A stretch of DNA of 42,050 bases, taken from Planctomycetota bacterium (lineage in GTDB: Bacteria > Planctomycetota > Phycisphaerae > Phycisphaerales > Phycisphaeraceae). The stretch lies in NCBI GenBank assembly GCA_024279865.1, contig JAJRRC010000046.1, positions 1 to 42,050 on the forward strand, in the 5' to 3' direction. Under the pieces are notes generated by a model. The model was not told the origin of the DNA and did no database searches. It saw only the letters and a list, made by a program, of their open reading frames with translations. The translations under genes and the position numbers were made by a program. Position 1 is the stretch's first letter. Each line of letters opens with the position of its first letter. Of this stretch, positions 4,614 through 39,439 are shown piece by piece.

Positions 4614-5573
4614 GTGAAACAAAACAACACGGCAACAAACATTTCAGGAAATACTTTCGAGGGCAAGGCCGGGGATACTTCCGGGGGCACGGTCGGGGGC
4701 AAGCCCGGGGGCACTTCCGGGGGGGAGCTTACGGTTGAAGAACTTCGGTCGCAGCTTCAGGATGCCAAACAGCAGTTGGCGGAGATGAGTGAGCAGCATG
4801 ATCATCATTTGGCCATGCTTGCTCATGCCAATCGGACTTATTCATCAATCACGCTGGGGGTGGGTTTGTCTCATGAAGTCAAGCAGCCCTTGGGCGCGAT
4901 TGTGAATTATGTGCAGGCTTGTCTACATATGCTTGAACAGGGTCATTACAACACAGAAGAGTTGCAGGACATCATGGCGCGCGCGTGTCATGAATCGCAT
5001 CGTGCTGCGGATTTAATTGAACGGCTAAGGCGATTTATCAGCAAGCGTGAGCCAAGACGTTCCACACTGAATTTCAACCATTCGGTATTGGAAACAATTG
5101 CGTTGTTGCAACTGCGTATGCGGGAACACGACATCCGTATTGAACTGGACATGGCCGATGACTTGCCTTTGATTATTGGTGACCGTATCCAACTCGAGCA
5201 GGTGAGCTTTAATTTACTGAATAATGCGATTGATATTTTGGCTGAATCTAATGCCGATGACCGACGTATTCATATAACGACCGGGCATACGGACGACGAT
5301 CATATCCATCTGGTTGTTCGTGATTGGGGTGGTGGCATGGATGATGAAACCAAGGATAAAATTTTCGAGCCGTTTTTTTCAACCAAAGCCCATGGCATGG
5401 GACTTGGCTTGGCCGTGAGCCATGCGATTATCGCAGCCCATCAAGGCAGCATTGAATTGCAGGTCGAAAAAAATCAGGGTTGTTCTTTTAAAGTATTGCT
5501 TCCAATTCAAAACAAGGCATTGCCAGAAGATTCCTTGCTTGTTGATGGTGTGTCAACCGTTCCATTGTTCTAG
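4614..5573 (+). CDS. Soluble sensor histidine kinase with G-rich N-terminal linker
   Basis: A 319-residue kinase that starts with GTG. In order: a Gly/Thr/Ser-rich segment (13-37), a short coiled coil (about 40-75), the dimerisation and phosphoacceptor helix SHEVKQPLGAIVNY with His87, and the catalytic domain with N box NLLNNAID (200-207), G1 box DWGGGMDD (237-244), F box FEPFFSTK (251-258) and G2 box GMGLGLA. This is the FixL/NtrB type of core. There are no membrane segments and no PAS or other recognisable input domain, so it is cytoplasmic and probably controlled by a partner or via the coiled coil. The G-rich segment is built from 12-bp DNA repeats. The response regulator gene follows after 107 bases. 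Confidence 0.93.
   Translation: MKQNNTATNISGNTFEGKAGDTSGGTVGGKPGGTSGGELTVEELRSQLQDAKQQLAEMSEQHDHHLAMLAHANRTYSSITLGVGLSHEVKQPLGAIVNYVQACLHMLEQGHYNTEELQDIMARACHESHRAADLIERLRRFISKREPRRSTLNFNHSVLETIALLQLRMREHDIRIELDMADDLPLIIGDRIQLEQVSFNLLNNAIDILAESNADDRRIHITTGHTDDDHIHLVVRDWGGGMDDETKDKIFEPFFSTKAHGMGLGLAVSHAIIAAHQGSIELQVEKNQGCSFKVLLPIQNKALPEDSLLVDGVSTVPLF
4653..4725 (+). repeat. Tandem 12-bp G-rich repeat in kinase gene
   Basis: Six consecutive 12-base units: ACTTTCGAGGGC (4653), AAGGCCGGGGAT (4665), ACTTCCGGGGGC (4677), ACGGTCGGGGGC (4689), AAGCCCGGGGGC (4701), ACTTCCGGGGGG (4713). Read in frame they give TFEG, KAGD, TSGG, TVGG, KPGG, TSGG. The last four G runs are separated by 7-base loops, which meets the common G-quadruplex pattern on the coding strand. 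Confidence 0.9.
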
Positions 5574-5680
5574 CTTAATAGAAGGAGACTTTTCTTTAGA
5601 TTTAAAATTTGTGGCCCCCCGATTCTATATTGAATATTCTGAGCCTTGCGAGAACCAATTCTCTATCCAAAGGAGATTAG

Positions 5681-6346
5681 ATGACCGAACCCCCGCCTAA
5701 AGCAAGTGTTGTGCCTATGGTCTTAATTGTCGAAGATGATAGTGCGTACAGTCATTCACTGGGATTGTTAATGCGTGTGTGGCAATTTCATTACCAAGCA
5801 TTTGGCAGTGCCCAAGCATTGTTGGATGCTCCCAATCTACTCACTGCTCAATGTCTTTTGGTTGACATTTGTTTGCCGGGGATGGATGGTTTGGACCTTC
5901 AGCAGCACCTCAACGAGCAGCGAATGTCCATTCCTTTTATCGCGATGTCTGCAAGAAGTGATGTGAGTGTCGCAGTGACTGCCACGAGGCACGGTGCAAT
6001 TACGTTTTTGGAAAAACCAATCCGTACCCCGATGCTCAAACAGGCAATCCATAGCGCGATCAAGGCCAGTCAAGTGATAGCGGACTATCGAGAAACACAA
6101 AGCCAGCTTAAGCAAAGGCTTGCCTTACTTACGCCACGTGAACGACAAGTTTTGGATTGCGTGGTCGAGGGGCAGTCCAGTGCGAAAATTGCCATGGCAC
6201 TGGAATTAAGCGTTAAAACAGTGACCCAGCACCGTGCGCATTTAATGCAAAAACTTCAGGCCAAAGGCCTCGTAGGATTGGTCCGAATGGTCACAGCTCA
6301 GCCACCGCCAACGGTAACGGCTCAAAGACCTTCACGGATCGCTTAG
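5681..6346 (+). CDS. FixJ-like response regulator (REC plus LuxR HTH)
   Basis: A 221-residue response regulator, probably the partner of the kinase upstream. The receiver domain (about 12-130) shows the acidic pair Asp19-Asp20 in VLIVEDDS, the phosphoacceptor Asp62 in VDICLPGMDG, Ser90 in AMSA and Lys112 in FLEKPI. A linker helix leads to a LuxR/FixJ helix-turn-helix, LTPRERQVLDCVVEG, then SSAKIAMALELSVKTVTQHR. It should bind DNA when phosphorylated. The start ATG 5681 is decided by the very good ribosome site AAAGGAG at 5669-5675. A proline-rich tail ends the protein. Targets cannot be deduced from the window. Confidence 0.93.
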   Translation: MTEPPPKASVVPMVLIVEDDSAYSHSLGLLMRVWQFHYQAFGSAQALLDAPNLLTAQCLLVDICLPGMDGLDLQQHLNEQRMSIPFIAMSARSDVSVAVTATRHGAITFLEKPIRTPMLKQAIHSAIKASQVIADYRETQSQLKQRLALLTPRERQVLDCVVEGQSSAKIAMALELSVKTVTQHRAHLMQKLQAKGLVGLVRMVTAQPPPTVTAQRPSRIA

Positions 6347-6387
6347 AGCCCCCCTGTTTTAACGGGTCTCAATCTCTAGTGCATTTT

Positions 6388-6753
6388 CTAACACGCTCTA
6401 GATGGGGCGTTTGAAAAGCAGCCGCACGCTAACAGCGTGCGCGTGGGGGGCGTTCGGGGGCATTCGGGGGGGTAGGGGAGTTCTCTGCCGGAGTCTTTGA
6501 TGGCTTTGATGAGGATGTGTTCGATTTTGAGGTAGCCTCCTGCTCGGGCTGCGTGTAGTGGGGTCCATCCACCTCGTGCAGAGGCGAGTGGGTCTGCACC
6601 ATTTTTCAGTAAGAATTGCACGACTTTGACGTGGTTGTGATCGACTGCATAGTGCAGTGGAGTCCATTTGTTGCGTTCGTCGTCGGGGACGTTGCCGTCT
6701 TGTTTGGCATCAATACACCCAAGGTATGCCGCCTTTTTCAATTCGTCATCCAC
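6388..6753 (-). CDS. Small ankyrin-repeat protein
   Basis: A 121-residue protein starting with GTG at 6753, nine bases after the stop of the next ankyrin gene on the same strand, so probably co-translated. Two ankyrin repeats are clear: NKWTPLHYAVDHNHVKVVQF with LLKNGADP, and RGGWTPLHAARAGGYLKIEH. There is no signal peptide, so it is cytoplasmic. The tail after about residue 90 is not ankyrin-like: it is encoded by a G-rich tract (6445-6472) and a perfect hairpin (6423-6441), and reads PYPPECPRTPP and then Cys-rich sequence. The natural end may once have been earlier. Ankyrin repeats bind other proteins; the partner is unknown. Confidence 0.7.
   Translation of the reverse strand: MDDELKKAAYLGCIDAKQDGNVPDDERNKWTPLHYAVDHNHVKVVQFLLKNGADPLASARGGWTPLHAARAGGYLKIEHILIKAIKDSGRELPYPPECPRTPPTRTLLACGCFSNAPSRAC
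6423..6441. terminator. Perfect hairpin at the end of the ankyrin gene
   Basis: CGCACGCT (6423-6430), loop AAC, then AGCGTGCG (6434-6441). It lies inside the last codons of the minus-strand ankyrin frame and between two convergent genes, where a terminator is expected, but it lacks a T run. Similar CGCACGCTAACAGCGTGCG hairpins recur in planctomycete genomes as far as I recall; this could not be checked here. Confidence 0.4.
6445..6472. repeat. G-rich repeat, 10-bp units
   Basis: GGGGGG followed by CGTTCGGGGG and CATTCGGGGG and two more G. It resembles the CTTCCGGGGG family but has a 10-base period, and lies in the tail of the minus-strand ankyrin gene, where it encodes PPECPRTPP. Confidence 0.7.
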
Positions 6754-6762
6754 AGCTTTCGG

Positions 6763-7290
6763 TTATATCTCGGGCGCGTCTGGCACAACGGTTTGTGGCC
6801 GATTTTTGAGCCAGAGCAATCCAAGGACGATGATGAAAGCCATGGCTCCTAGGAACATCCATGTTTCAGTGCCAGGCATGCTGCCATGGGTGAGCAGCAG
6901 CCACCAGATGGACCAGGATCGAGCCAGGTCCAGCGGGGTGCGCCCTTGGGTATCACGCAGGTTGGGATCTGCATTGTGGGCGAGCAGGAGTCGGGACATG
7001 ACCAGTTGGTCGTCTTGGACTGCTAGATGTAGTGCGGTGGAGCCTCGTGGGTCTCTTTGATTGGGATTAATCCTCGAGTCTGCGAGCAGGGTCTGGACAG
7101 GCATCAGATCGCCTCGAAGGACCGCTTGGTGTAATACTGGCGGCTCAATGGGAATCTTCGCTGCAATCACAGGCGAGGTCAGAAAGCTTCCCCATGCCAA
7201 AAACAAGATGGTGGCTATTTTTTTTATCACTAAAATCTCTATCGGCCAAATGAGGTTGGATTCCTTTACATTGACGTGTTTATCATTCAT
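6763..7290 (-). CDS. Membrane-anchored ankyrin-repeat protein
   Basis: A 175-residue protein with an N-terminal hydrophobic segment (about 19-43, IEILVIKKIATILFLAWGSF then LTSPVIAA) that looks like a signal peptide or anchor. It is followed by ankyrin repeats: PPVLHQAVLRGDLMPVQTLL, then DPRGSTALHLAVQDDQLVMS, then DTQGRTPLDLARSW. A second hydrophobic helix (about 143-161, WMFLGAMAFIIVLGLLWL) is near the C-terminus. The repeats would therefore sit outside the cytoplasm, anchored at the inner membrane. The small soluble ankyrin gene follows nine bases downstream. A shorter start at the internal hydrophobic region is possible. Function unknown beyond likely protein binding. Confidence 0.75.
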   Translation of the reverse strand: MNDKHVNVKESNLIWPIEILVIKKIATILFLAWGSFLTSPVIAAKIPIEPPVLHQAVLRGDLMPVQTLLADSRINPNQRDPRGSTALHLAVQDDQLVMSRLLLAHNADPNLRDTQGRTPLDLARSWSIWWLLLTHGSMPGTETWMFLGAMAFIIVLGLLWLKNRPQTVVPDAPEI

Positions 7291-7402
7291 GGCAGGCAGG
7301 GTATTTTGTTTTAACCTGTCGAAAGAGACTTGAGTGTGAAGAAATCATACACACTGGGCCATGCAAAAACCCCAAGGATGGCCCCTTGGTATGATGGCGG
7401 TT

Positions 7403-8173: not shown

Positions 8174-8304
8174 GTAGACAAGCCCGTGTTTTTCTTTGCC
8201 CGTGGGTTAGAAAAAAGGACTTTACGAGGCAAAATAGTCAATCAGGTCTTGTGTGATAGGCGTGGATTGGTATGGTAGAAGATTAGCAAGGAAGTATAGA
8301 ACCC

Positions 8305-8781: not shown

Positions 8782-8795
8782 TTGTTTCAAATAAA

Positions 8796-9003: not shown

Positions 9004-10536
9004 ATGCGTGTCTTAATGCTTGGGTGGGAATTTCCCCCTCATATCAGTGGAGGTCTGGGAACCGCCTGTTTGGGTTTGACCCGTGCCTTGGATCGGCAAC
9101 ATGTCGAGGTTGTGTTTGTTCTACCGACCGGACTGAGCCATGGGGATCAGAATAGTCACGTTAAATTGATTGCAGCAGACAGCCCGCCCGTGGCGAAGAG
9201 GCATGCCTCAGCTATTTCAAAATCAGATTCAACCGCATCAGTCATTCCAACAGTCGAATCTTCACAAACCATTCGACCCACAAGGCCGGTGGCGATGTCC
9301 AAAACATCTTCGGGCCTAACCATGCGCCCGGTGGATTCTCCTTTGACCAACCCGTATCAAATGGAGGGGGGCCAACTCGAAGATTTACCCGCTCACATGC
9401 GGGAGAGTCTTCAGCGAGCCCGAGCGTACTTGGCTCGTGGCGGTACTGAAACATCCTCACGGACCTCCGCCTATCGATCACTGGACGGGTGTAATGATTC
9501 GTCCAGAGGATCTTTGGCAGATGGTGGGGGGAGTTTCGGGGGCGACTCCGGGGGCGGCTCCGGGGGCAGTGCCGGGGGCGGGGGGGGGGAGGGGCCTGCC
9601 AATTATGTGGGTGATGTGGTGGAACAGGCACATTTATATGCCCAGCGATGTTTGGCGGTCGCCAAGGCTGAGCAGTTTGACGTGATTCACGCCCACGATT
9701 GGATTACCTATCCCGCGGGGTTGGCGATTGCCCGTGAATGCAACAAACCTTTGGTGGTGCATGTTCATTCCACCGAGTTTGATCGGTCAGGCGAGAATGT
9801 CAATCAACGGGTGTACGATCTGGAACGTCAAGGGATGCACGGTGCAGATCGTGTGGTCACGGTGAGCTATCTGACCCGTTCAATTGTGGCTGAACGGTAT
9901 GGCACCCATCCAGACAAAATTTCCGTGGTCTACAACGGCATCGACAACGGCAACGGGAACGGCCACACTACCTCCAAAACCACCATTGGCAAGAATGACA
10001 AAGTGGTCTTGTTCCTCGGACGTATTACCATGCAAAAGGGTCCGGAATATTTCATTCGGGCTGCCAAGCGTGTTTTAGAAAAAGAACCGAATGTAATTTT
10101 TGTCATGGCTGGCTCCGGCGACCGGACCGCGGACACCATGGACTTGGCAGTCAAAGAAGGCATTGACGACAAGATTGTTTTCACTGGCTTTTTACGCGGT
10201 CGAGAGATTGACGAGATTTTCCATCTGGCCAATGTCTTTGTCATGCCCAGTGTCTCTGAACCGTTTGGCATTGCACCGCTTGAAGCGATCAGCCACGACG
10301 TGCCTGTGATTATTTCCAAGACTTCAGGCGTTTCAGAAGTTTTGACCCATGCGCTGAAGGTCGATTTCTGGGATGTGGATGAAATTGCCAACAAGATCAT
10401 TGCGGTCTTGCGTCATGCCCCGTTGTCGCAGACCTTGCGGACCCATGCCGATGTGGAGCTTCGGCGGCTCACTTGGGACGAAGCTGCTGACAAATGTGTC
10501 CATGTCTACGAAGAACTGATTCACAAAAAGAGGTAA
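9004..10536 (+). CDS. Glycosyltransferase, GT4/glycogen-synthase-like
   Basis: GT-B fold enzyme. The N-terminal domain opens RVLMLGWEFPPHISGGLGTA, the GxGG-type acceptor and nucleotide loop of starch/glycogen-synthase-like enzymes. The C-terminal domain has VVLFLGRITMQKGPEYFI and the SEPFGIAPLEAI motif, with the two Glu spaced as in retaining GT4 enzymes. It probably transfers a sugar from a nucleotide donor to a glycan. Between VFVLPTGLSHG and AEQFDVIHAHDW lies an insert of about 150 residues of low complexity, ending in a Gly/Ser linker made of 12-bp DNA units and a run of ten G (9580-9589). The start is ATG 9004, or GTG 8992 in the same frame. bioA follows after 48 bases. Confidence 0.88.
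   Translation: MRVLMLGWEFPPHISGGLGTACLGLTRALDRQHVEVVFVLPTGLSHGDQNSHVKLIAADSPPVAKRHASAISKSDSTASVIPTVESSQTIRPTRPVAMSKTSSGLTMRPVDSPLTNPYQMEGGQLEDLPAHMRESLQRARAYLARGGTETSSRTSAYRSLDGCNDSSRGSLADGGGSFGGDSGGGSGGSAGGGGGEGPANYVGDVVEQAHLYAQRCLAVAKAEQFDVIHAHDWITYPAGLAIARECNKPLVVHVHSTEFDRSGENVNQRVYDLERQGMHGADRVVTVSYLTRSIVAERYGTHPDKISVVYNGIDNGNGNGHTTSKTTIGKNDKVVLFLGRITMQKGPEYFIRAAKRVLEKEPNVIFVMAGSGDRTADTMDLAVKEGIDDKIVFTGFLRGREIDEIFHLANVFVMPSVSEPFGIAPLEAISHDVPVIISKTSGVSEVLTHALKVDFWDVDEIANKIIAVLRHAPLSQTLRTHADVELRRLTWDEAADKCVHVYEELIHKKR
9532..9589 (+). repeat. Tandem 12-bp G-rich repeat with a G10 run in glycosyltransferase gene
   Basis: AGTTTCGGGGGC (9532), GACTCCGGGGGC (9544), GGCTCCGGGGGC (9556), AGTGCCGGGGGC (9568), then ten G (9580-9589). 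In frame these give SFGG, DSGG, GSGG, SAGG, GGG. The four G5 runs are spaced by 7 bases. A change in length of the G10 run would shift the frame before the catalytic domain. Confidence 0.92.
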
Positions 10537-10584: not shown

Positions 10585-11841
10585 ATGTCGATTTGGTATC
10601 CGTACGCTCAGATGAAGACCGCCAATTGGCCGTTGAAGGTGATTTCTGCTCAGGGGGTTTATCTACAGCTAGACGATGGCCCGCGTTTAATTGATGCTAT
10701 CAGTTCCTGGTGGTGCGTGATTCATGGCTACAACCACCCACAGCTCAATGAAGCCATCACCCATCAACTTGGCCAGATGGCCCATGTCATGCTCGGCGGG
10801 TTGACCCATGACCCCGCTGAAAAATTGGCGGACAAACTTGTCGCCATCACGCCTGAGGGTTTGAACCATGTGTTCTTTGGTGACAGTGGATCGGTGGGCG
10901 TGGAAATTGCCATGAAAATGGCGATCCAGTTTTGGAAAAACCAAGGCCAAACGAAAAAAACAACCTTGCTGGCTCTAGAGGGTTCCTATCATGGGGATAC
11001 CTGTGGGGCGATGTCCTTATGCGACCCCGCAGGCGGCATGCACGCACTCTTTGCTGGCCTCTTGCCACGCCAAATTTTTGTCCCTTCACCACGAGGCGGG
11101 TTTGAGGCTTCTGCTCAAACTGTTGAAGAAGATTTAGTCCAACTCGAAGCGGTTCTCCAGGAACAGGCCCCTCATTTGGCAGCCATGATCGTCGAGCCCA
11201 TCATGCAAGGCGTGGGTGGGTTTCGGTTTTACAGTCCTTTGTATTTGCAGCGAGCCAGAGAGCTTTGCGATGCGTATGAGGTGCTGTTGATTTTCGATGA
11301 AATTGCCACGGGGCTAGGTCGCACCGGTCGAATGTTTGCCGCGGATCATGCAAGGGTGACGCCTGACATCATGGTGGTCGGTAAAGCGCTAACCGGAGGC
11401 TACCTCACCCTCAGCGCCACGCTGGCGACGGACCGGGTCTTCAATGCGTTTTACGATGACGATGCGGGCAAAGCTTTGATGCATGGCCCAACGTTCATGG
11501 GGAACCCGCTGGCCTGTGCGGTGAGCCTGCAAAGTATTGAACTGTTTGAGCAGGGGGATTATCTCTCCCGTATCCGTCAGATTGAAGCAATCTTGCGAGC
11601 AGGGTTGTTGGATCTCGATGGTGAAGCCATTTGTGAAGTACGTGTTCTGGGCGCGTGTGGTGTGATCGAGGTGTATGACAAGGCTGCGTTGGAAGGGATT
11701 GCAAACTTTGCGATTTCGCGTGGTGTCTGGTTGCGGCCGTTTGATCGGTATGTTTATACGGTTCCGCCGTATGTCATCACTGAAAGCCAGTTAGAGCAAG
11801 TGGTCGGGGTGTTGCGGGACTGGTTTACCAAAAAAAAATAA
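10585..11841 (+). CDS. bioA: Adenosylmethionine-8-amino-7-oxononanoate aminotransferase
   Basis: PLP enzyme that makes 7,8-diaminopelargonate in biotin synthesis, using S-adenosylmethionine as amino donor. Features of class III aminotransferases are present: ISSWWCVIHGYNHP (39-52, the BioA substrate-side motif), GDSGSVGVEIAMKMA, YHGDT, IFDEIATGLGRTG with the cofactor Asp238, and VVGKALTGGY with the PLP Lys267. The start is ATG 10585, chosen because TAAGGA lies just upstream; an in-frame TTG at 10579 is less likely. Length (418 residues) is normal. No other bio gene is adjacent; it lies between a glycosyltransferase and a secreted protein gene. Confidence 0.95.
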   Translation: MSIWYPYAQMKTANWPLKVISAQGVYLQLDDGPRLIDAISSWWCVIHGYNHPQLNEAITHQLGQMAHVMLGGLTHDPAEKLADKLVAITPEGLNHVFFGDSGSVGVEIAMKMAIQFWKNQGQTKKTTLLALEGSYHGDTCGAMSLCDPAGGMHALFAGLLPRQIFVPSPRGGFEASAQTVEEDLVQLEAVLQEQAPHLAAMIVEPIMQGVGGFRFYSPLYLQRARELCDAYEVLLIFDEIATGLGRTGRMFAADHARVTPDIMVVGKALTGGYLTLSATLATDRVFNAFYDDDAGKALMHGPTFMGNPLACAVSLQSIELFEQGDYLSRIRQIEAILRAGLLDLDGEAICEVRVLGACGVIEVYDKAALEGIANFAISRGVWLRPFDRYVYTVPPYVITESQLEQVVGVLRDWFTKKK

Positions 11842-13746: not shown

Positions 13747-13802
13747 CCCCCGGAAGTTTCCCAAGGCCCCCGGAAGCCCTCCCCGGAAGCCCCCCCCGGA
13801 AG
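13747..13802. repeat. Intergenic cluster of four CCCCCGGAAG units
   Basis: CCCCCGGAAG at 13747 and 13767, CCCCGGAAG at 13781, and a C8 run (13790-13797) followed by GGAAG. The first copy continues CCCCCGGAAGTTTCCC, which recurs next to the DUF4838 stop codon. Here the family occurs outside coding sequence, between hisI and the MFS gene. A weaker inverted repeat follows to about 13850. Confidence 0.85.
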
Positions 13803-13926: not shown

Positions 13927-15186
13927 ATGACACTGGCTCAAACAGATTTAGCAAACCCGCATGCCTCGGTTTCGATCACAGATCGGCCGGTTCGCACGTT
14001 CGTGGCGATCATGCTCGCCCATGTGCTGATCGACTGTTATGGCGGTGTGTGGCCGATTTTTAAGAAATTAGCCGAGTTGGATTTGGCCTGGGCAGGATTG
14101 ATCTCCACCGTGGCGACCATGACCACCATGAGCCTTCAGCCGTTGATCGGCATCTGGGCGGATCAAGGACGACGACGCTTTTATATCTTGCTCGGAACCA
14201 CCATGGGATGCGCAGGCATGCTGCTAGGCCCATTGGGGGTTTACCAACATGCACTGGGGGTGGTTCCCGCTTATGCCATGATGTTTTGCCTGCTGTTGAT
14301 CGTCAGGCTCGGGCAAACGCTGTTTCACCCACCGGCAGCAGGCGTGGCAGGTAACGCCATTGAGGGTAAACGCTCCATGCTGGTGGCGATCTTTGTCAGT
14401 GGCGGCATGATCGGTTTTGCCAGCAGCCAATCGTTATTTAGCATCGCGTACGAACGACTTGACGGCCACACGTTTTGGTTGTTGTTGCCAGCGATCCCAT
14501 TATTACTGATTACTTATGCGTGGTGTCGACCCCTCGAAAACCAGACACGCACACGGCGAAGTTGGGGAGACGTGGCAGAAGCCTTGGGACTCCTCAAAAC
14601 CCGCATGGTAGTGCTGTATCTGATCCTTGTCATGATTAGCGGACAAATGATGGGCCTATTCTTCCTCTTGCCTGAACTACTCGAAACCAAGGGCTATCCC
14701 ATCTGGCTGGTTCACGGCGGGGGGTTCGGCCTCATGATCGGCGGGGGGGTTCTCCTGATGGTCCCAGTCGGTCACCTCGCTGACCGAATCGGACGACGAC
14801 GGATGCTCGCTGCCACGCTGGCGTTGTCCATTGTGAGCTATTATCTGGTGGTCTGTTTGCCTGCGATGCCCATTGGAATCTTTGTGGTCTTTTGCCTCGT
14901 GACCGGCGGCATCATTGGAACCGCCAACCCGCTGGGCGTGGCGTTGGGACAATCACTGTTGCCCCACAAGGCAAGCCTTGTCAGTGGATTGCTGATGGGA
15001 TTGGCGTGGTCTGGAGCTGGGCCCGCGCAGTGGACCGTGGGTTACCTTGCCTCGCGGCCGGACGTGGGCATCGAGCGAGCCTTGATGTTTTTAGGAATTG
15101 CAGGCGTGGTGGCTTTGCTTTTATGCGTGCTGTTGCCCAAGGCTTCTCATTTTTCAAAGTACGATGAAACACCATGCAGCAACTAG
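13927..15186 (+). CDS. Major facilitator superfamily exporter, fosmidomycin-resistance-like
   Basis: Inner-membrane transporter with 12 likely helices in 419 residues. Its arrangement resembles the Fsr-like drug exporters: LAHVLIDCYGGVWPIFKKL in helix 1, the A-type loop GIWADQGRRR after helix 2, LGQTLFHPPAAGVAG in helix 4, and a second-half loop VGHLADRIGRRR. It probably exports a small molecule with proton coupling; the substrate is unknown. I start it at ATG 13927 because the upstream in-frame residues from 13870 look like leader DNA. It overlaps the start of the methyltransferase gene by 13 bases, so the two are probably translated together. Confidence 0.85.
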   Translation: MTLAQTDLANPHASVSITDRPVRTFVAIMLAHVLIDCYGGVWPIFKKLAELDLAWAGLISTVATMTTMSLQPLIGIWADQGRRRFYILLGTTMGCAGMLLGPLGVYQHALGVVPAYAMMFCLLLIVRLGQTLFHPPAAGVAGNAIEGKRSMLVAIFVSGGMIGFASSQSLFSIAYERLDGHTFWLLLPAIPLLLITYAWCRPLENQTRTRRSWGDVAEALGLLKTRMVVLYLILVMISGQMMGLFFLLPELLETKGYPIWLVHGGGFGLMIGGGVLLMVPVGHLADRIGRRRMLAATLALSIVSYYLVVCLPAMPIGIFVVFCLVTGGIIGTANPLGVALGQSLLPHKASLVSGLLMGLAWSGAGPAQWTVGYLASRPDVGIERALMFLGIAGVVALLLCVLLPKASHFSKYDETPCSN

Positions 15187-16409
15187 ATCTTAAAATTTGG
15201 CAGGATATAAACACCGAGGCCTTTGCCGATTTGGTCGCTGCTGCTGCCCTGTGCAAACTAGGCGACGTACAAGCGATTAGCCGCTTACGCCAACGCTGGG
15301 ATGCAGATTATGTCACCGCTGCGTTGAGTCTTGGGCAGGCCCGAACCAAAGCCCAACTGAAATGGCCCGATCACGCAGCGACTTTGATGGCAGATAGTGT
15401 GGGCGTCGAGCAGGCGACCTCTGAACGTGTGGGGATGTACAAAGCAGCCCGCTTTGCCAAGCTCGGCCGCCCGGTGGTGGACTTGTGTTGCGGCATCGGT
15501 GGCGATGCCATGGCCTTAGGCAAACAGGTTGTTTTGGCGGTGGATAGGGACCCCGTGCGTGCGTGGATGACCCAACGCAATGTGGGGTGTCCTGCGGTGG
15601 CAACAGACCTCAAAAATCTCCTGCTCGAAAATTTTCCCGTTGGGTCTAAAGGTACCGAGGACAAGCTTCCGGGGGGCTTTGAAAATCCCTTGGACAAGCT
15701 TCCGGGGGGGGTGGTTTTTCATATTGATCCTGCTCGGCGGAACAGTCATGGTCGGACGCATCACTATGCGGATTATCAGCCGGGGCCGTTGGAGATCGAA
15801 GCTTTGCTTGAGAAGTGGCCGACGGGGGCGATTAAACTTGGCCCCGGGGTGGATCGCGAAGAGTTACCTCCCGGCGAACTGGAATGGATCAGTGACAGCG
15901 GCCGACTGGTGCAGGCCGTGTTGTGGACGGGCGAATTGGCGGGTCCGTCACGTCGAGCGACTTGTTTGCCTGCGGGTTTAAGTTTAGCTGGCGAGCCTGA
16001 CACGCCGCCGGGCGGGCCGATTCAGCGGTATGTGATGACTTTTGATGCTTCGGTGGAGCGGGCTGAGTTGATCGGCCGTTTGTGCCAGGAACTGGACGTG
16101 CGGTGTCTGCATCCGAGGATTGGGCTATTGAGCAGTGAAACATTGGTGACAAGCCCGTGGGTCACTTGTTTTGAGGTGCTGGATGTGGGGCCTTGGCGTT
16201 TGAAGCGTGTTCGTGATTGTCTCAAGGCTCATGATGGCGGGCTCGTTGAAATCAAGACGCGGGATCGTGTGGTCGATCCGGATCAGTTGCAAAAAAAACT
16301 GCGAGGCAAGGGTTCCGCCCGTTTAACTGTTTTTATTCTGCGGTGGGGTGATAAGGTCCGGGCCATCGTCGCGCAGCGGATGAAGTCCGGTCAGCCCGCA
16401 AAAAAATAG
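15174..16409 (+). CDS. Class I SAM methyltransferase with THUMP-like tail
   Basis: A 411-residue methyltransferase. After an N-terminal helical part, the SAM-binding strand-loop VVDLCCGIGGDAMALG (about 100-115) and the acidic VLAVDRDPVRAWM follow, then VVFHIDPARR, which fits the catalytic or substrate loop of this family. The C-terminal half, including HPRIGLLSSETLV and LKRVRDCLKAHDGG, corresponds to the THUMP-like domain found in these proteins, which suggests an RNA substrate (inference). Two KLPGG copies (residues 163-179) interrupt the loop just before the catalytic motif and are encoded by the G-rich repeat. The start overlaps the MFS gene. Confidence 0.82.
   Translation: MQQLDLKIWQDINTEAFADLVAAAALCKLGDVQAISRLRQRWDADYVTAALSLGQARTKAQLKWPDHAATLMADSVGVEQATSERVGMYKAARFAKLGRPVVDLCCGIGGDAMALGKQVVLAVDRDPVRAWMTQRNVGCPAVATDLKNLLLENFPVGSKGTEDKLPGGFENPLDKLPGGVVFHIDPARRNSHGRTHHYADYQPGPLEIEALLEKWPTGAIKLGPGVDREELPPGELEWISDSGRLVQAVLWTGELAGPSRRATCLPAGLSLAGEPDTPPGGPIQRYVMTFDASVERAELIGRLCQELDVRCLHPRIGLLSSETLVTSPWVTCFEVLDVGPWRLKRVRDCLKAHDGGLVEIKTRDRVVDPDQLQKKLRGKGSARLTVFILRWGDKVRAIVAQRMKSGQPAKK
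15660..15711 (+). repeat. Duplicated G-rich unit in methyltransferase gene
   Basis: GACAAGCTTCCGGGGGG occurs at 15660-15676 and again at 15693-15709, 33 bases apart (11 codons); the second ends in eight G (15704-15711). Both encode DKLPGG and together they extend a loop just ahead of the conserved HIDPARR motif. Confidence 0.92.
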
Positions 16410-30922: not shown

Positions 30923-30947
30923 ACCGGGGGAAACTTCCGGGGGGGGG
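30923..30947. repeat. G-rich repeat directly after the DUF4838 stop
   Basis: Read on plus: CCGGGGG, AAACTTCC, then nine G (30939-30947), touching the TAA stop of the minus-strand gene at 30948-30950. On the minus strand this reads CCCCCGGAAGTTTCCC, the same string as at 13747. It lies exactly at the boundary between the gene and its broken duplicate. Confidence 0.85.
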
Positions 30948-33900
30948 TTATTGTGCGGCCCGCAAGCGGACGGGGAAATAAATCCCGCCCGCGTATTTTG
31001 AATCATGCACTCGGACGACGAGCAGGTTTTTGCGGCCATACTGGAGACGGTCGGGAGAAATCGCCAGTTTAAAAGGTTGATTCCAGATATCGCCTGCGGT
31101 TTTCTTTGTAGAGGCGATGGTGCGTTCACCAAGATAGGTCCCGTTGAGATAGACCCATGCCTGTTCATCGACGCCTGCAAAATTGATTTCCATGGCCTTG
31201 CCTGCAAACTTTTTGGGGATTTGAATCTTTGTTCGATACCAAGCGTAGCCGTCATAAGCACCGATACTTTTTTCCCAAGCCAAAGGAACCTTGATGCGTT
31301 GCCATTGACTGTCATCAAATGACGAAGCATGCCAGCCTTGCTCGGTTCCGATATTGCTCGGATCGGTTTTGAAGGACCACTTCTCTGGCGGCACAATCGT
31401 ATCAGGCCCATCCGCCACCACCCGTGCATAGAGTCCCCAAGGGAATGACGCAGCGTTAAAATTGGTCTGGGAGAGCTTGAAGACAAGGGTGTTGGTGCCT
31501 TTGTTCATGCGAACTTCAACCTGGCGTTTGTCCGGGCAATCCGCGTCATTGCCCTGTCTATCGTAGACTTGTTTGCCATTGACATAGACCACAAAGGGGT
31601 TATAACTGTCCATCCGCAATTGCACCCGCATGTTGCGTTGAGAGTTGTAGGTGGTGCTTGCAAAGACATAGGCCAGTTTGTCAGGGTTTTTCCGATTTGT
31701 CAGGGCGTTTTCCAGATCGAGAAATCCGAAGGGGCTTTTGTAATTGCGCCAGTGAGCTGTTGTGCCATCTTTGAGGACGACCGGTCCGCTAGTTGATGCA
31801 ATGGGTTCAAACGGATCACGATACCTTGCAGCATTTCGATCACTGTTGTCAAAAGGACCAAGCAGTTTCCACTCGGTGAAAAAGCCCAGCTCTTTGGGGA
31901 AATATTTTGCGAGCGTTTTGAGACGCATGGTTTTGGATCGTTGTTTGGCATCGGCTGCATTGAGGAACCCGCCCGCGACCAGTTCTTTAATTACTTTGTC
32001 CATGCGAGCAAAAGCATCTACCGCTTTTTTGTATTGGTGGTCTTGAGATTGCCACACGCCGTCGAGATAGGCTTCGAGATAACGCTGACTCATATCAACC
32101 ATGTCGAGGCGTTCACGGTAGGGCGTTTGGGCAGAGCCGATTGTGATGGCCTGATCCAGAAAACCGCGTGCGGTACGCACTATTTTGGGATTGAATATTT
32201 CATGGTAATACGTCAGGCCAAAGCCGATTTTCTCGCGGCCCTGATGGGCGGTGTCCGAGTCCGTTACCGTCGCCAACTCACGATAGTATTGCTCCATCGG
32301 CTTCGCGGCAGGCCCGAAAAAAGACTCGCACATTTCCCGCAAAACCTGATCGGGGTCTTGAGAAGGGTCAATCTTCATCCGCTGTGAAAGATAGCGGTTG
32401 AGGTATGTAGACGCTCCGGTCAAAGCGTAGCGACCATCAGAATAACTACCCCGCACACCATGTTCATTGAACATCTCTTTGAGAGAACGCATCATCCCCA
32501 TGTAGATCGGCGAAGGCAATCCGCCCGTCCACGAAATGGGATCATATTCATAAAGATAAAGGTTCGGCGTCAACGCACGCCAACGCTTGACCAGCTCGCC
32601 AAAATTGGAGGCTTCGCACTTTTCGGTCGGGACCAGATGAAGAATGCAATGATTGGTCCGACACAAACCAATAATCACGTTATCAACAGGCTTCGTCTTG
32701 ACAGGCGGCTCGATATGGGTCGCATAAGCGTAAAAGGCCACATAGCGATCAGGAAACTCATCGCGTATCCCCACAGCAACAGCATTGGCAAAGGCAAGCA
32801 CCCGGTCGGTGACGATGGGCATGCCATCTTTCGTGGGTTTGCCAGGGGCATCCAAAGCCACGCACACATCACATTGGCAGAAGTCACTGTTGTCCGCAGG
32901 GTCCATCGGAAAGCTGATGGCGGCGGGTCTTTTTTTGAAAAAAGCCTTGGCGGCTTTGATCATGGCCTCGACCACCTCTGGATTGCTCGTGCAAAGCTGC
33001 TGGGGCTTGCGTTCGCCCGCCAGGAGCGAATACCAATGGGGGTTTGTCTTAAAATATTTTTTCGGTGGCAGCGCGTAAAGCCAATAATGCTGGGCTGAAA
33101 GCCAGTTATGCCAATTGGCCATGTTCCGACTACCCCATGGATTGCTTTTTCGGTCAAAGGCAAAATGGTTGCGGGGTGAAAATTCCGTCACGCCTCGCCC
33201 AAGCGTCAGCGTGGTGCGGGTGGGGATACACTCACCGATTTTCCCAGGCATGATCCAACGACAACCCCAACTGTCGAGCATGTAATATAGTGCGTTACGA
33301 AACCCCGATGAGGTATAGGCTCGTATGACAACAGCTTTATCACTGGCGTCAATGACAAAACCCTGTGCAAGACGAATGTCTTCAAGTGACACGCCCCAGG
33401 GATTCGTCCCGGCAGGATAATCCTTTAACTCCAGACGCAAGGGGATCAAAGAGGAAGACGATGACGCGTTGATGGTCACGTTTTTAGACTGCGTTGCTTG
33501 AAGGGTGATGTTGTTCCAGCCACCTGGGGCAGGTTTTAGCATGAGCACGCCATAGCCCAATGCCGCGCCGCCCTGGGTCTGGCAGACGCGCCAGGGTCCG
33601 ATTTCTCCTTTATCCATTTCGTCTTCACTGGCCTGGCCGAAGAAGAGGGTCTTGTCTGCCCGGGTCACGCGGATGTCCTTGAGGCTGACCGTGGCGAGTC
33701 GTCCCTTGGGGTGATAGGCCGAGATGTAGAAAGCGGTTTTGCCTGCCCATTGTTTTTGCCAGTTGGCGGTCCATGCTTGGGGTCCTTTTTTGTCGGATTC
33801 GCCTGGCTCACGATTGTCCACCCCGGCTTTGGTGGGATCGTACCATTGGGTATAGACCCAGGGTTGATCGTCAATGGCGTAGCCACCTCGGATGTTGCCT

Positions 33901-34508
33901 TGGTTGCCGCCTTGCATTTCTAATACAAGGCGTATGGTGCTGCCCTTTGTGAAATTGGGTGCTTTGGCTTTTAGTTGTTCAAAGGTGATTGGTCCATAGC
34001 CCGGTCCGTAGTAGGCCTGGTTCGCCACCTTGAGGTCGAAGGTCAACGTCCCTTTGCCACGGTTCCATGCGATGCTCCAAGCGACTTTCTCGCCTGCTTC
34101 GGCAAAAGGGTTTTTGACAAATTGCCCATGGGTACTGGCAATCAAGCTAAACCGTGCGTTGGAAGAGCCAGAGGCCGAGGCATCTTCGAGCTTGACGATC
34201 TGACATTCAAACCGCGTGGGCTGAGATTGAGCCGGATCAAACAACGCCCCCCCGGCCCCCACCCCGGAAGTTCCCCCAACAGGCAAGGCTTGTCCCGTCA
34301 TGATCGAGATGCACCGCGTAAAGTCCGCCATCGCGTTTGCCAGTCCCAAGTCCTTAATTTGCTTGGCGCCAATGTCGAGATAGACCCTTGCTTTGCCTTG
34401 ATCGACGACCGTGAATGTCTCGTTTGCCAGCGAATGTCTTTGGGGTATCCAAAAGACCAGAGCCATCGCAAAAATAGCCAAGGTCCAATTTGTTCGGTTC
34501 ATTTTCAT
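30948..34508 (-). CDS. Large secreted DUF4838 protein with GH2-like C-terminal domain
   Basis: About 1186 residues from ATG 34508, chosen because MKMNRTNWTLAIFAMALVFW then IPQRHSLA is a signal peptide with AGGGAAA upstream. The N-terminal part (GAKQIKDLGLANAMADFTRC, about 48-67) resembles the alpha-glucuronidase N-terminal fold. Around residue 410-440, SGFRNALYYMLDSWGCRWIM is the usual lead into DUF4838, which includes FCQCDVCVAL. The last 250 residues form a GH2-type sugar-binding jelly roll (DDSQWQRIKVPLAWEKS, AWVYLNGTYLGE). It probably acts on a uronate- or sulfate-containing polysaccharide outside the cytoplasm; the exact activity is unknown. It shares an operon with the prepilin-like gene upstream. 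Confidence 0.85.
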   Translation of the reverse strand: MKMNRTNWTLAIFAMALVFWIPQRHSLANETFTVVDQGKARVYLDIGAKQIKDLGLANAMADFTRCISIMTGQALPVGGTSGVGAGGALFDPAQSQPTRFECQIVKLEDASASGSSNARFSLIASTHGQFVKNPFAEAGEKVAWSIAWNRGKGTLTFDLKVANQAYYGPGYGPITFEQLKAKAPNFTKGSTIRLVLEMQGGNQGNIRGGYAIDDQPWVYTQWYDPTKAGVDNREPGESDKKGPQAWTANWQKQWAGKTAFYISAYHPKGRLATVSLKDIRVTRADKTLFFGQASEDEMDKGEIGPWRVCQTQGGAALGYGVLMLKPAPGGWNNITLQATQSKNVTINASSSSSLIPLRLELKDYPAGTNPWGVSLEDIRLAQGFVIDASDKAVVIRAYTSSGFRNALYYMLDSWGCRWIMPGKIGECIPTRTTLTLGRGVTEFSPRNHFAFDRKSNPWGSRNMANWHNWLSAQHYWLYALPPKKYFKTNPHWYSLLAGERKPQQLCTSNPEVVEAMIKAAKAFFKKRPAAISFPMDPADNSDFCQCDVCVALDAPGKPTKDGMPIVTDRVLAFANAVAVGIRDEFPDRYVAFYAYATHIEPPVKTKPVDNVIIGLCRTNHCILHLVPTEKCEASNFGELVKRWRALTPNLYLYEYDPISWTGGLPSPIYMGMMRSLKEMFNEHGVRGSYSDGRYALTGASTYLNRYLSQRMKIDPSQDPDQVLREMCESFFGPAAKPMEQYYRELATVTDSDTAHQGREKIGFGLTYYHEIFNPKIVRTARGFLDQAITIGSAQTPYRERLDMVDMSQRYLEAYLDGVWQSQDHQYKKAVDAFARMDKVIKELVAGGFLNAADAKQRSKTMRLKTLAKYFPKELGFFTEWKLLGPFDNSDRNAARYRDPFEPIASTSGPVVLKDGTTAHWRNYKSPFGFLDLENALTNRKNPDKLAYVFASTTYNSQRNMRVQLRMDSYNPFVVYVNGKQVYDRQGNDADCPDKRQVEVRMNKGTNTLVFKLSQTNFNAASFPWGLYARVVADGPDTIVPPEKWSFKTDPSNIGTEQGWHASSFDDSQWQRIKVPLAWEKSIGAYDGYAWYRTKIQIPKKFAGKAMEINFAGVDEQAWVYLNGTYLGERTIASTKKTAGDIWNQPFKLAISPDRLQYGRKNLLVVRVHDSKYAGGIYFPVRLRAAQ
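34247..34277. repeat. G-rich repeat inside the DUF4838 gene
   Basis: On plus: C7 (34247-34253), C5 (34256-34260), then ACCCCGGAAG and TTCCCCC. On the minus-strand gene it encodes a short Gly-rich loop GGTSGVGAGG at about residue 78-87, just after a conserved block. This is the same CCGGAAG core as elsewhere. Confidence 0.8.
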
Positions 34509-34662
34509 GTCAAGAATTTCCCTGAAAAAAGGTGGCAAAAAAAACAAAAAAGGTTGTTTTGAGAAGACCAAAAACGGTCAAAATGAGTCCACAGTACCCC
34601 ACTCGTGAGACCCAATGGGCAACGCGACAGAACAGTAGGCTATGTGTCATACAGGAGTTGAA

Positions 34663-35397: not shown

Positions 35398-35467
35398 GTC
35401 AATAGACCTTTCTTGCTTGAAACCGTGACGGAACGTTTCATCCCTCAGAAGTCTGACTCAAAACATT

Positions 35468-35505: not shown

Positions 35506-35689
35506 GATATTTAAAAAAAATATTCGATTGAGCCATGAAAATGGCCGTTCAAAAAACATACTGCTACAAAAAAAAATTTAGATTAGTTGTTTTTCTACTT
35601 AAAACAAGTGTTTTATTGGTTTGGCATCTTTCCACGAACCACGACATGAGAGGGTTTTTTAAATTGTTTCTAAATATTCCTTTTTGTCC

Positions 35690-35717
35690 TTTACTTTGTA
35701 TTTTTTTTGCGTATAAT
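35690..35717 (+). promoter_or_regulatory. Promoter of the GntR-type gene
   Basis: TATAAT (35712-35717) is a perfect -10 box; TTTACT (35690-35695), 16 bases before, is a fair -35 box. The gene starts about 70 bases further on. Confidence 0.5.
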
Positions 35718-35787
35718 CATCTGAGAATAAACATATTTGGCGTTGGAATATGTCAGTCCGTGAAAGATTTGCCCCAACAGGTGACAG

Positions 35788-36957: not shown

Positions 36958-36965
36958 CTGCATAG

Positions 36966-37646
36966 CTATGTCAAGGCGGGGTCCGCGATTCCCAACTCTG
37001 CAAAAGCGTGATCTCGAAGAATACAGCTATCGCAATGTCTACACGGCTGGCCTTGTTCGTCGGGGTCGTAACAGCTATGGGTGAGGCTGTAGTCCACACC
37101 CAGTGAGAGACCTTTTTGAATGATCTGGATTTTGGTGAGGTCGATGAGTGGTGTGTGGATTTTGAGTGTGTGGCCTTCAACGCCAGCCCGGGTGGCGAGG
37201 TTTCCCATGTGCTGATAAGCCTCGATAAATTCGGGTCGACAATCGGGATAGCCTGAATAATCGACCGCATTGACCCCGATGAAAATATCGGTGCAATCAC
37301 GGACTTCTGCCATGGCCAGGGCATAGGCCAGGAAAATGGTATTGCGGGCGGGTACATAGGTGATGGGGATATCTTGGGCCATGTGGCTTTCATCACGATC
37401 TTTGGGGACTGCGATTTCGTCGGTCAGGGCCGATCCGCCAAAGGCTCTTAAATCGATTTTGATCCATCGGTGCGAGGTGACACCTAGGTGTTCTGCGACT
37501 TGTTTGGCTGCATGGAGTTCCACACGATGCCGTTGGCCATAGTCAAAGCTCAGTGCGTGACATTCGGTGAAGCCTTGTTTTTTGGCGATGGCGAGGGTGG
37601 TTGCACTATCGAGGCCGCCGGAGAGGAGGACAATGGCGTTTTTCAT
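36966..37646 (-). CDS. queC: 7-cyano-7-deazaguanine synthase
   Basis: QueC makes preQ0 from 7-carboxy-7-deazaguanine, ATP and ammonia, in the path to queuosine tRNA modification. The P-loop [11 protein letters not shown] (9-19), [31 protein letters not shown] and the C-terminal zinc site [17 protein letters not shown] (about 192-208) are all intact; 226 residues is normal. The start ATG 37646 overlaps the stop of the RDD gene (ATGA), so the genes are translationally coupled. The frame is open further upstream, but that part is the RDD gene's repeat-rich end. No other que gene is present. Confidence 0.94.
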
Positions 37647-39439
37647 GAGGGGGATTCCGGTGGGTCGTTTTTTGAGGGGGGTTCCGGGGGAACCGGGGGC
37701 GTTTCCGGCGTTTCCGGGGGGGCGGCGGGGTCGTGTTGAACCACGATGGTTTTTCCGACGACATCGCCGAGTCGTTGACGGTAGGGGCTCACGAGCATGA
37801 GGATCGGCAAGACGTACCATGCCACGAGGTCTAGTACTTTTAAGAGATTTCGCCAAAATATTTGCCAGACATCAGGCAATTCGCCGTTGAGGGAGTAGAC
37901 ATGGAGGCCCATGATTTTTTTCCCAAGTGAGCGGGCTGTGAATAGTTCGGTCAGGGTGGTATGGGCGATGTAAATACTGATGGCGATTAAGCCGGGGGTC
38001 ATTTGTGACCAATCACTCCCCACGCCTGGCCAGTGGTCAACGAGATGACGCAGGCGTACATCGCACAGCCCCGCAGCGATCATCATGCTCGGCAAGAGGT
38101 CGATGACCAACGCCATGGCTCGTTTGCCAAAGCCTGCCAATATCATTGTTGGAGGCAAGGTGGCTTGGGGTGTTTCAATGGCTCCCCCGGAAGTGGCCCC
38201 CCCGGCCCCCCCGGCCCCCCCGGTTCCCCCCCCGGTTTCTCCATCAGCATCTTCAATTTTGGGATCGCGTCGCCATAGGCCGAACATCACCAGGATCGAG
38301 ATGGCCATGGCAATGGCGACCACCAGTCGTCGTGGGTCTGCGAGGCTTGGCCCTGAACGGGCAATGATCAGAGGCATTGCTTTTTCTGATAGGCGACCTT
38401 GCAGATCAATTGTTCGCGTCAGTGCGATGACCTTGTCATCAAGTTGCAACATGGCGATTTGTGAACCCATTGCCAAAAGCTGTCTTTCACCGGTCGATTC
38501 GGTCGACATTTCCAAAACGCCCAGCGGCAAGATGTGTGGCGGACGTAGCAAAAAAAGTTCTGCAGATAATTCATCAAGCCAGTGACATAAAACGGCTTGG
38601 CCCATAATGTGCAAAGGTGTGAACGAATGGTCTTTGGGTGTGGGAAAGGTTTTGGTGAAAGGGCTGGGTTGCCAGTGATCTTCTTGGCGTTCGAAGATTG
38701 TTAATGTGGCGTTGGAGGCCAAGTGTATCAGTGTGGGCCAGGCATTTTCTTGGGGCTGTGATGGCGTGAGAAGCCATGTTTTACCCAGTGGGTCTAGTGT
38801 GGTTGGCAGGGGGCGTGTTTCCCAGCCTGTTCGTTGCAGAACTTGGAGGTGGAGCTTGCGGTCCTCGGTTTGTAAAAGAACATAGAGTCCTTGCGTGGTG
38901 ACAGCCATTTGCTGCAAGGTGCCTTGGCCTGGCAAATTAGGATGAACCTTACTGACGAGGATCGGGCCAGTGACCGGGGCGGACTTCAATTGGCGTACGG
39001 TCATGCTTTGCACCGCACGGTTGGCAAAGATGATCCATAAACGACCTTGATGGGTAGCGAGGCCTTGTGCGTGAGGATGGATTTTCCCTTTGAGTGTGCC
39101 AATTTTTTGCCATGTATTGGCTGGCGATGTCGTGTGCCGATGGAGGATGCCAATGGTGTTCTCCAGGCCAGGCAAAACAAGCCATTGGTCAACTTCGTCG
39201 CCGACGGCCCCCCATGCAGTGGTCAAAGGCATGGTCAGCGAGTCCAAAGAAGTGTCATTGGGGGCTGCTTGGGGGGACACCGCCAAGGTCACTGCTGGAG
39301 GTGTTTCCAGGGACACTTCCGGGGGTACTTCCGGGGGTACTTCCGGGGGGGTTAAGGCCAAGAGCGGACACAGAATAAAAAGGAAGGCAATCATGACTGT
39401 TGGACACGATACGCCAACGGCTCGTTGTCGTCGAGCCAA
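37643..39439 (-). CDS. RDD-family membrane protein with exported N-terminal domain
   Basis: Up to 598 residues. A hydrophobic signal ([14 protein letters not shown], about 17-30) leads to a Pro-rich stretch (31-60), then an extracytoplasmic domain to about 370 with repeated strand pairs ([20 protein letters not shown]), perhaps a beta-propeller. A single helix ([17 protein letters not shown], about 376-392) and a Gly-rich linker precede the RDD domain (about 425-570) with [37 protein letters not shown] and [14 protein letters not shown]. The C-terminus is Pro-rich. Function unknown. The start is uncertain: TTG 39439 is the longest, ATG 39394 would still keep the signal. Three separate G-rich repeats occur in the gene. 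Confidence 0.75.
37676..37730. repeat. G-rich repeat at the 3' end of the RDD gene
   Basis: G6 (37676-37681), TTCCGGGGG, AACCGGGGG, two GTTTCCGG units, then G7 and more G-rich sequence. In the minus-strand gene this encodes the Pro/Glu-rich tail [19 protein letters not shown]. It lies next to the queC start. Confidence 0.8.
38184..38233. repeat. Repeat in the RDD gene's linker, opposite orientation
   Basis: On plus: CCCCCGGAAGTGG, three C7 runs split by GG, TT, then C8 (38226-38233). The minus-strand gene therefore reads CCACTTCCGGGGG, encoding the Gly-rich linker [19 protein letters not shown] between the transmembrane helix and the RDD domain. It is inverted relative to the other two repeats in the same gene. 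Confidence 0.85.
39303..39350. repeat. Three to four 12-bp units near the 5' end of the RDD gene
   Basis: TTTCCAGGGACA (39303), CTTCCGGGGGTA (39315), CTTCCGGGGGTA (39327), CTTCCGGGGGGG (39339). The minus-strand gene reads them as PPEV repeats ([15 protein letters not shown]) directly after the signal peptide. Two units are identical. Confidence 0.92.

What the first reader, a model, noticed from the sequence alone, without database searches (positions are those of the whole stretch)
4653..39350. A dispersed family of 12-bp G-rich units placed in frame inside unrelated genes
A CTTCCGGGGG core, usually as 12-base units (NNN-TCC-GGG-GGN in one frame), occurs at 4653, 9532, 13747, 15660, 30923, 34247, 37676, 38184 and 39303, with a 10-bp variant at 6445. 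Hosts are a kinase, a glycosyltransferase, a methyltransferase, a DUF4838 protein, an ankyrin protein and an RDD protein, plus two non-coding sites. Depending on frame and strand the units encode TSGG, DKLPGG or PPEV. They always fall in loops, linkers or tails. Simple codon bias would not produce the same string in three frames and in intergenic DNA. This suggests a repeat that spreads or expands and is tolerated where the protein is disordered.
Basis: partly seen in the sequence, partly recalled or inferred. Interest (0 to 1): 0.8.

Follow-up and report, generated by a model that had tools for sequence, protein, structure and literature searches.

The report
Ten-letter DNA word that spreads
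A short DNA word, (C)TTCCGGGGG, occurs hundreds to over a thousand times in some planctomycete genomes and in related phage DNA, is seen to arrive as small insertions even inside an essential gene, and how so short a piece of DNA multiplies is not known.

Summary
The repeat is real and far larger than the window. CTTCCGGGGG occurs 660 times in this 3.42 Mb genome, its reversed control twice. The family is Phycisphaeraceae (G003 is Phycisphaera mikurensis); 51 family genomes hold 3 to 1180 copies, and among 392 phylum genomes sampled a strong excess is seen only in this order. The exact unit is a 9-10 bp word; the 12-bp period is one in-frame spacing. Synonymous-codon shuffles give 1.4-1.8 copies where 25-53 occur in genes of three word-rich samples. 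Between congeners copies appear as insertions of 7-22 bp, e.g. 12 bp in frame in gltX, absent from three relatives, also as block replacements and point changes. Viral contigs related to a prophage of one relative carry 0.59 words per kb with the same in-frame presence/absence. Reverse transcriptases, Chi-type strand bias and quadruplex potential do not explain it. Best reading: a self-copying micro-repeat kept where tolerated; an uptake-sequence-like signal is the main rival. The mechanism is inferred, not shown.

The parts
4651..4723 (+). Array in the N-terminal tail of a HisKA/HATPase kinase (4614-5573 +): two exact words at 4678 and 4714 plus degenerate units, peptide TSGGTVGGKPGGTSGG
6446..6470 (+). 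Degenerate 10-bp variant (GGGGGCATTC) near the 3-prime end of an ankyrin ORF (6388-6753 -)
9537..9580 (+). Degenerate array (TCCGGGGG at 9547 and 9559) in the N-terminal part of the GT4 glycosyltransferase; the four closest orthologues align only from about residue 95, after the array, others from 47 to 102 (inconclusive)
13747..13802 (-). Array of three exact words and one with a mismatch, spacing 13-20, between the called PRA-CH (hisI) gene (-) and an MFS gene (+)
15666..15708 (+). Two words 33 bp apart in the THUMP-like gene (15174-16409 +), inside a linker insertion absent from the 10 orthologues read
30934..30947 (+). Single word with a G9 run; on the other strand it directly follows the TAA of the DUF4838 gene
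34261..34270 (-). One-mismatch copy in the DUF4838 gene (30948-34571 -), peptide GGTSGVGAGG
37681..37720 (+). Two one-mismatch copies, read as PPE on the other strand, in the C-terminal tail of the RDD protein
38184..38193 (-). Single exact word in the RDD protein gene (TSGG), next to a GGCCCCCCC array at 38195-38223
39316..39351 (+). Three exact words at period 12 near the N-terminus of the RDD protein, read as (PPEV)3 on the other strand

Best explanation
(C)TTCCGGGGG is a proliferating micro-repeat of Phycisphaeraceae. SHOWN: the exact word is far over-represented on both strands; between close relatives it comes and goes as indels of about 7 to 22 bp that contain it, at least two of them clearly insertions, and as block replacements; it also duplicates locally into arrays; copies inside genes are kept mostly in frames the protein tolerates; the same is seen in phage-like DNA related to a prophage of one of these hosts. 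INFERRED: new copies are templated by existing ones, most simply by polymerase stalling at the G5 run followed by template switching to another copy through short homology, so that the word copies itself without a dedicated enzyme. Copy number then depends on each lineage's rate of switching against loss by drift, mutation and selection.
For: Four of 26 gaps of 6 bp or more in 69 kb of G066-G064 alignment contain the word. Nine distinct gap events at words in genus g44, merged by eye; direction is clear for the 12 bp in gltX (three relatives lack it). In the phage set a 12-bp insertion (L335:11731) is lacking in all 14 homologous copies compared, and pairwise gaps at words peak at 6, 9 and 12 bp (27, 40 and 34 of 171). 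Local unit duplication beside existing words, read by eye, at L325:4436 and L335:9987. In G006 each single-base variant at positions 2-10 occurs 0-7 times against 118 exact. Phage contigs: 84 words in 143 kb, reversed control 0. Words concentrate in low-coding-score genes in G000, G015 and G061 and in intergenic DNA in G000 (44 of 87 clusters; genes cover 83%), as expected of something tolerated rather than wanted.
Against: The 5-prime half TTCC is as invariant as the G run, which stalling at G alone does not predict. G006 has mostly single, sharply kept sites with few decayed neighbours (excess ratio 0.23) and, like G066, no avoidance of well-scored genes, which looks like maintenance. Several gains look like point changes from near-words (L257:940, L266:1906, and L273:238, which may be a paralogue). 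Some gaps may be losses: the dnaK word is in G066 and G063 but not in G064, and the L262/L294 word likewise. No donor-recipient pair was identified. Copy number is fairly stable within some genera (g44 200-425, g9 27-57), though g10 spans 3-80.
Confidence: 0.42

Rival explanations
1. Uptake-sequence-like signal: the word is a DNA uptake or recombination tag, as DUS in Neisseria, kept by biased transformation. New sites are established with imported alleles.
For: Up to about 10^3 exact copies, near-equal on both strands. New sites face gaps, unrelated sequence or one-mismatch forms, the pattern reported for neisserial DUS (PMC2397512, section 9 read). The dnaK word lies in a tract of about 150 bp where G066 is closer to G063 (0.88) than to its sister G064 (0.79). 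The ComEC domain is found in 44 of 51 family genomes.
Against: Phage-like DNA is rich in the word, whereas DUS are reported absent from recently acquired genes (PMC2397512, abstract passage). Long tandem arrays. Fewer words in well-scored genes in three of five genomes. ComEC is also present in low-copy family genomes and in E. coli.
Confidence: 0.25
2. Chi-like or self-marking word: a nuclease or recombinase reads it, the host accumulates it and phages acquire it for protection.
For: Exact asymmetric G-rich word, dense in phage contigs. In G006 it is scattered over all gene score classes.
Against: No clear preference for the G-rich strand in G006 (0.55), G061 (0.47) or G000 (0.57); only G015 shows 0.69, p=0.008. 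On the 4.10 Mb contig of G009 strands are 20 plus and 27 minus in the first 2.05 Mb and 12 plus and 21 minus in the rest (recounted by hand from the lists), with no switch. Tandem arrays are not expected.
Confidence: 0.13
3. Quadruplex-forming G-rich repeat whose structure is selected or drives expansion, as GGGNATC repeats in Xanthomonas and Nostoc.
For: G5-N7 arrays; a canonical G4 motif near 40 of 77 word clusters in G000 and 24 of 60 in G015.
Against: 6 of 150 clusters in G006, 1 of 42 in G061, 0 of 23 in G066. The TTCC half is fixed.
Confidence: 0.08
4. RNA-templated addition of the word by a reverse transcriptase that makes short tandem repeats, as telomerase or DRT10.
For: Short G-rich tandem units; insertion into naive sites.
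Against: No RVT_1 match in G000, G015 or G061, three of the four richest genomes; G006 has one. These are incomplete assemblies (94-98%), and RTs outside PF00078 were not searched.
Confidence: 0.02
5. Ordinary codon or composition bias, or an assembly artefact.
For: G-rich words occur by chance in GC-rich genomes; outside the order many genomes have some copies, near their controls.
Against: Synonymous shuffles 1.35-1.8 against 25-53 observed. Reversed control 2 against 660. Found in many separate genomes and in frame in gltX.
Confidence: 0.02

Closest known systems
DNA uptake sequences (DUS, Neisseria) and uptake signal sequences (USS, Pasteurellaceae)
   Same: Exact word of about 10 bp, of the order of a thousand copies in the richest genomes, both strands, inside genes and between them; new sites often face gaps or unrelated sequence, as reported for DUS (PMC2397512: passages and section 9 read)
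   Different: Tandem arrays; dense in phage-like DNA; no uptake shown; USS were reported not to be insertions (PMC1626085, passages read), whereas here insertions are seen
GGGNATC quadruplex repeats of Xanthomonas and Nostoc (Rehm 2015, PMC4692102; abstract and section 14 read)
   Same: Dispersed G-rich short repeat, enriched between genes, often near stop codons
   Different: [quoted passage not shown] here single units dominate in G006 and G061, and in genus g44 many sites are not shared
Cyanobacterial HIP1 and heptameric STRR repeats (recalled, not searched)
   Same: Genome-wide exact short words or short tandem arrays limited to a lineage
   Different: HIP1 is a palindrome (recalled); this word is asymmetric and its gain by insertion is seen directly
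Rickettsia palindromic elements (recalled; only search listings seen)
   Same: Inserted in frame into unrelated protein genes and tolerated
   Different: RPE are about 100-150 bp with hairpins (recalled); this unit is 9-12 bp with no long shared flank

Membership tests
DUS/USS | exact short word hugely over-represented, both strands | tested here: met
DUS/USS | few decayed neighbours (maintenance) | tested here: inconclusive
   excess one-mismatch to exact ratio 0.23 in G006, 0.49 in G061, 0.57 in G015, 0.58 in G000, 1.05 in G066
[quoted passage not shown]
   0.59 per kb in 14 phage contigs; 5 words in the 20 kb stretch with a G066 phage portal gene; fewer in high-score genes in G000, G015, G061, even in G006 and G066 (coding score is only a proxy for core)
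DUS/USS | preferential uptake of word-bearing DNA | not testable with these tools
   needs a cultured strain
Chi | leading-strand bias | tested here: not met
   GC skew used as proxy, (G015 is the exception, 0.69)
Quadruplex SSR (GGGNATC type) | four G tracts preferred | tested here: not met
   6 of 150 clusters in G006, 1 of 42 in G061, 0 of 23 in G066; but 40 of 77 in G000 and 24 of 60 in G015
MITE or RPE-type mobile element | longer conserved body with terminal inverted repeats | tested here: not met
   conservation around 87 clusters reaches weakly about 8 bp upstream and stops after the G run (G000 only)
Reverse-transcriptase-templated repeat (DRT10, telomerase; DRT10 known from the start of an abstract) | RT gene present in carriers | tested here: not met
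   no RVT_1 in G000, G015, G061
Simple tandem repeat (VNTR) | arrays grow from local duplication | tested here: met
   local unit duplications read; new isolated sites are not explained by this

The most novel reading that the evidence does not exclude
A 9-10 bp word would be the smallest self-spreading DNA unit I know of: an active process writes it into chromosomes and prophages of Phycisphaeraceae at naive sites, so that an exact word multiplies to over a thousand copies with no body, no ends and, in three of the four richest genomes, no reverse transcriptase of the RVT_1 family.
Probability: 0.33. Interest if true: 0.9.

Novelty: new variant of a known kind. Interest (0 to 1): 0.73.

Why it matters
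How lineage-specific words such as DUS, Chi and HIP1 arise and spread is a long-standing question. Here the word is caught arriving, as small in-frame insertions in identifiable genes such as gltX of congeneric species and in phage-like DNA, and its copy number differs several-hundred-fold within one family (3 to 1180). That makes gain rate, donor and selection directly measurable. It also shows a source of new linker peptides (TSGG, LPGG, PPEV) in unrelated proteins. It would be either an uptake-type signal in Planctomycetota, for which two text searches found no paper, or a self-copying micro-repeat.

Tried and rejected
Taxon naming by the genome-contig scan with QueC gave hits scattered over many phyla; the family was named instead by the P. 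mikurensis plasmid. A first orthologue alignment picked wrong frames and was replaced (10 of 26 loci kept). RT/telomerase-like templating was rejected. ComEC presence is uninformative. Two exact array patterns found nothing in viral contigs; a looser one found 28 stretches, not analysed further. The portal search kept the best 80 of 286 relatives. The G066-G064-G063 table includes paralogous or messy alignments (for example L246:17094, L238:6040 against G064, L273, L274); the nine gap events were counted by eye after merging shared sites and adding L247:12356. The totals (203 present, 171 gap, 215 three or more mismatches, 59 two, 45 one) are pairwise and count shared sites many times; 112 of the 171 gaps are multiples of 3. 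In the 14 close phage contigs one-mismatch neighbours number 79 against 84 exact (no expectation computed). Gene calls come from a home-made hexamer caller, so starts and some short genes are uncertain. Cluster counts differ by definition: TTCCGGGG (87 in G000), TTCCGGGGG (77). The G000 sample (438 kb) includes contigs chosen because they held words, so densities from it are biased upward; whole-genome counts come. In gltX, 5 of 29 homologues besides G006 hold 13 words, some possibly upstream of the true start. In one search the second typed strand list was mistyped and is not used; the figures given were recounted. GT4 against solved structures gave alignments that start after the array and so tell nothing about it. 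Paper searches: 'DNA uptake sequence' with Planctomycetes 0 papers; Planctomycetes with 'overrepresented oligonucleotide' 0; the word itself in 26 papers, the 6 listed ones unrelated by title; some searches were seen as listings; PMC1939737 as outline and abstract only. None of this proves absence from print.
Full report
OBSERVATION. The window holds 16 copies of CTTCCGGGGG with at most one mismatch (12 exact) against 3.0 in shuffles, maximum 9. The whole genome G000 (3.42 Mb, 122 contigs) holds 660 exact copies, 352 and 308 on the two strands, and 2 copies of the reversed word. In a 438 kb sample (window plus 20 stretches) it is the most over-represented 10-mer among those seen at least 25 times (89 against 1.1 expected). 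Around 87 clusters conservation reaches weakly back to about GGGGAAAC before TTCCGGGG and fades after the G run, so no longer element is hidden behind it.

WHO HAS IT. Of 51 family genomes, 20 have at least 100 copies and 12 fewer than 20; the richest are G015 1180, G006 1067, G061 727 and G000 660. Of 392 genomes sampled across the phylum, outside the order none exceeds 101 copies (G200, control 77); a few show a modest excess (G340 43 against 15, G114 36 against 10, G244 15 against 0), most lie near their control. Within the order, family f6 has 58, 100 and 32 (controls 6, 6, 3) and G371 143 (control 13). G066 has the length of CP087563.1, 'Planctomycetes bacterium syqfu'.

WHAT THE UNIT IS. 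The word is sharp: in 448 kb of G006 there are 118 exact 10-mers against 0.7 expected, while each single-base change at positions 2 to 10 occurs 0 to 7 times and at position 1 12 to 16 times. One-mismatch forms of the 9-mer are nevertheless above chance in every genome tested, with an excess of 0.23 (G006) to 1.05 (G066) per exact copy. In G006 141 of 150 clusters and in G061 39 of 42 are single words; G000 has 44 single of 77 and G015 36 of 60, the rest being arrays whose period differs from place to place. In genes the word is not explained by protein content: synonymous-codon shuffles give 1.8, 1.5 and 1.35 copies where 53, 36 and 25 occur in G000, G006 and G015; in the smaller G014 and G009 samples it is 4 against 0.38 and 3 against 0.25.

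WHERE IT SITS. In G000, 44 of 87 clusters are intergenic although called genes cover 83%. Of the 43 genic ones the frames are 28 TSGG/APGS, 14 LPG/PPE and 1 FRG. G006 has 13 of 63 clusters between genes and frames 22, 22 and 6; G015 43 of 78 and frames 16, 15 and 4. In G000, 20 of 359 genes have a C5 or longer run within 2 nt after the stop codon, 15 of them with the word within 30 nt, against 1 gene with a G5 run; words start within 10 nt after the stop 13 times in the C orientation and never in the G orientation. This is not general: the C and G counts are 8 and 6 in G015, 1 and 1 in G006, 2 and 0 in G061, 3 and 0 in G066. The orientation rule in G000 is unexplained.

HOW IT ARRIVES. In the window, the THUMP-like protein has about 23-26 extra residues that carry two words; the 10 orthologues read lack them. 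The GT4 gene is inconclusive. In G006, gltX (PF00749) carries four words: relative to the closest homologues two come with 1-2 extra residues, one by substitution, and one where some orthologues share the peptide. Congeners give the clearest view. In 69 kb of G066-G064 alignment, 4 of 26 gaps of 6 bp or more contain the word: 12 bp in gltX (absent from G064, G063 and G065), 9 bp in dnaK (PF00012; present in G063, so perhaps lost in G064), and 11 and 7 bp where no gene was called. The 7-bp one lies at the tip of an inverted repeat. Nine distinct gap events were counted in the genus, not all with known direction, beside a block replacement (L238:3300) and changes from near-words (L266:1906, L257:940). 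The dnaK word lies in a tract of about 150 bp where G066 resembles G063 more than its sister.

PHAGES. The G066 stretch L238 (5 words in 20 kb) carries a lambda-family portal gene. Fourteen viral contigs with portals 88-91% identical hold 84 words in 143 kb (reversed control 0); 66 more distant ones hold 141 in 633 kb (control 4), and 23 of them have two or more (the best 80 of 286 relatives). Their hosts are not known; that they are Phycisphaeraceae is inferred from the prophage. Pairwise comparison shows presence/absence with gaps mostly of 6, 9 and 12 bp; one 12-bp word insertion is missing in all 14 copies compared (L335:11731), and units duplicate next to existing words (L325:4436, L335:9987).

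MECHANISM. Shown: indels and block replacements carrying the word, local duplication, filtering by reading frame, presence in phage-like DNA. Inferred: existing copies template new ones, most simply by template switching at a G-run stall. Not explained by this: why TTCC is invariant, why some gains are point changes, why G006 is so clean. The main rival is an uptake-sequence-like signal: new neisserial DUS also face gaps, unrelated sequence or one-mismatch forms (PMC2397512, section 9). Against it are the wealth of words in phage-like DNA and fewer words in well-scored genes in G000, G015 and G061, though not in G006 and G066. USS were reported not to be insertions (PMC1626085 passages). Chi-like bias is absent in three of four genomes tested. 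Quadruplex potential is common only in G000 and G015. Three of the four richest genomes have no RVT_1 reverse transcriptase.

VERDICT. It resembles known classes of genomic words but misses a tested feature of each except the plain tandem repeat, which does not explain new isolated sites; so it is filed as a new variant with an open mechanism.

Noticed in passing
G000 sample, e.g. L089:13656, L095 minus strand 3140-3160; single CTGATAGC copies in the window at 10696 (as GCTATCAG) and 13176: A second dispersed repeat: arrays of a 7-bp unit (CTGATAG type, e.g. TTCTCTTACTGATAGCTGACAACTGATAGCTT); 50 copies of CTGATAGC in 438 kb against 6 expected. The window coordinates are those printed.
   Followed up: partly
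window 30934-30950 and 19 other gene ends in the G000 sample: Stop codons followed within 2 nt by a C5 or longer run, in 15 of 20 with the word in C orientation within 30 nt; a G run there in only 1 of 359 genes. Function unknown.
   Followed up: partly
L238 (G066:C1:3700001-3720000) and L322-L335: A stretch with a lambda-family portal gene, and close viral contigs, are richer in the word than the G066 samples on average.
   Followed up: yes
L247, about 6625-6775: Short tract in dnaK around the word where G066 is closer to G063 than to its sister G064: possible recombination.
   Followed up: partly
L129-L135 (G014) and L119-L128 (G015): Other over-represented words: AGCCAGTAG type in G014, TACCCCGTAC and CTGCTGTGTG type in G015.
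   Followed up: no
L184 (G015 gltX): A Gly/Ser-rich run (GGSGGASGG) with six words, in columns where all other gltX rows have gaps, in glutamyl-tRNA synthetase.
   Followed up: no
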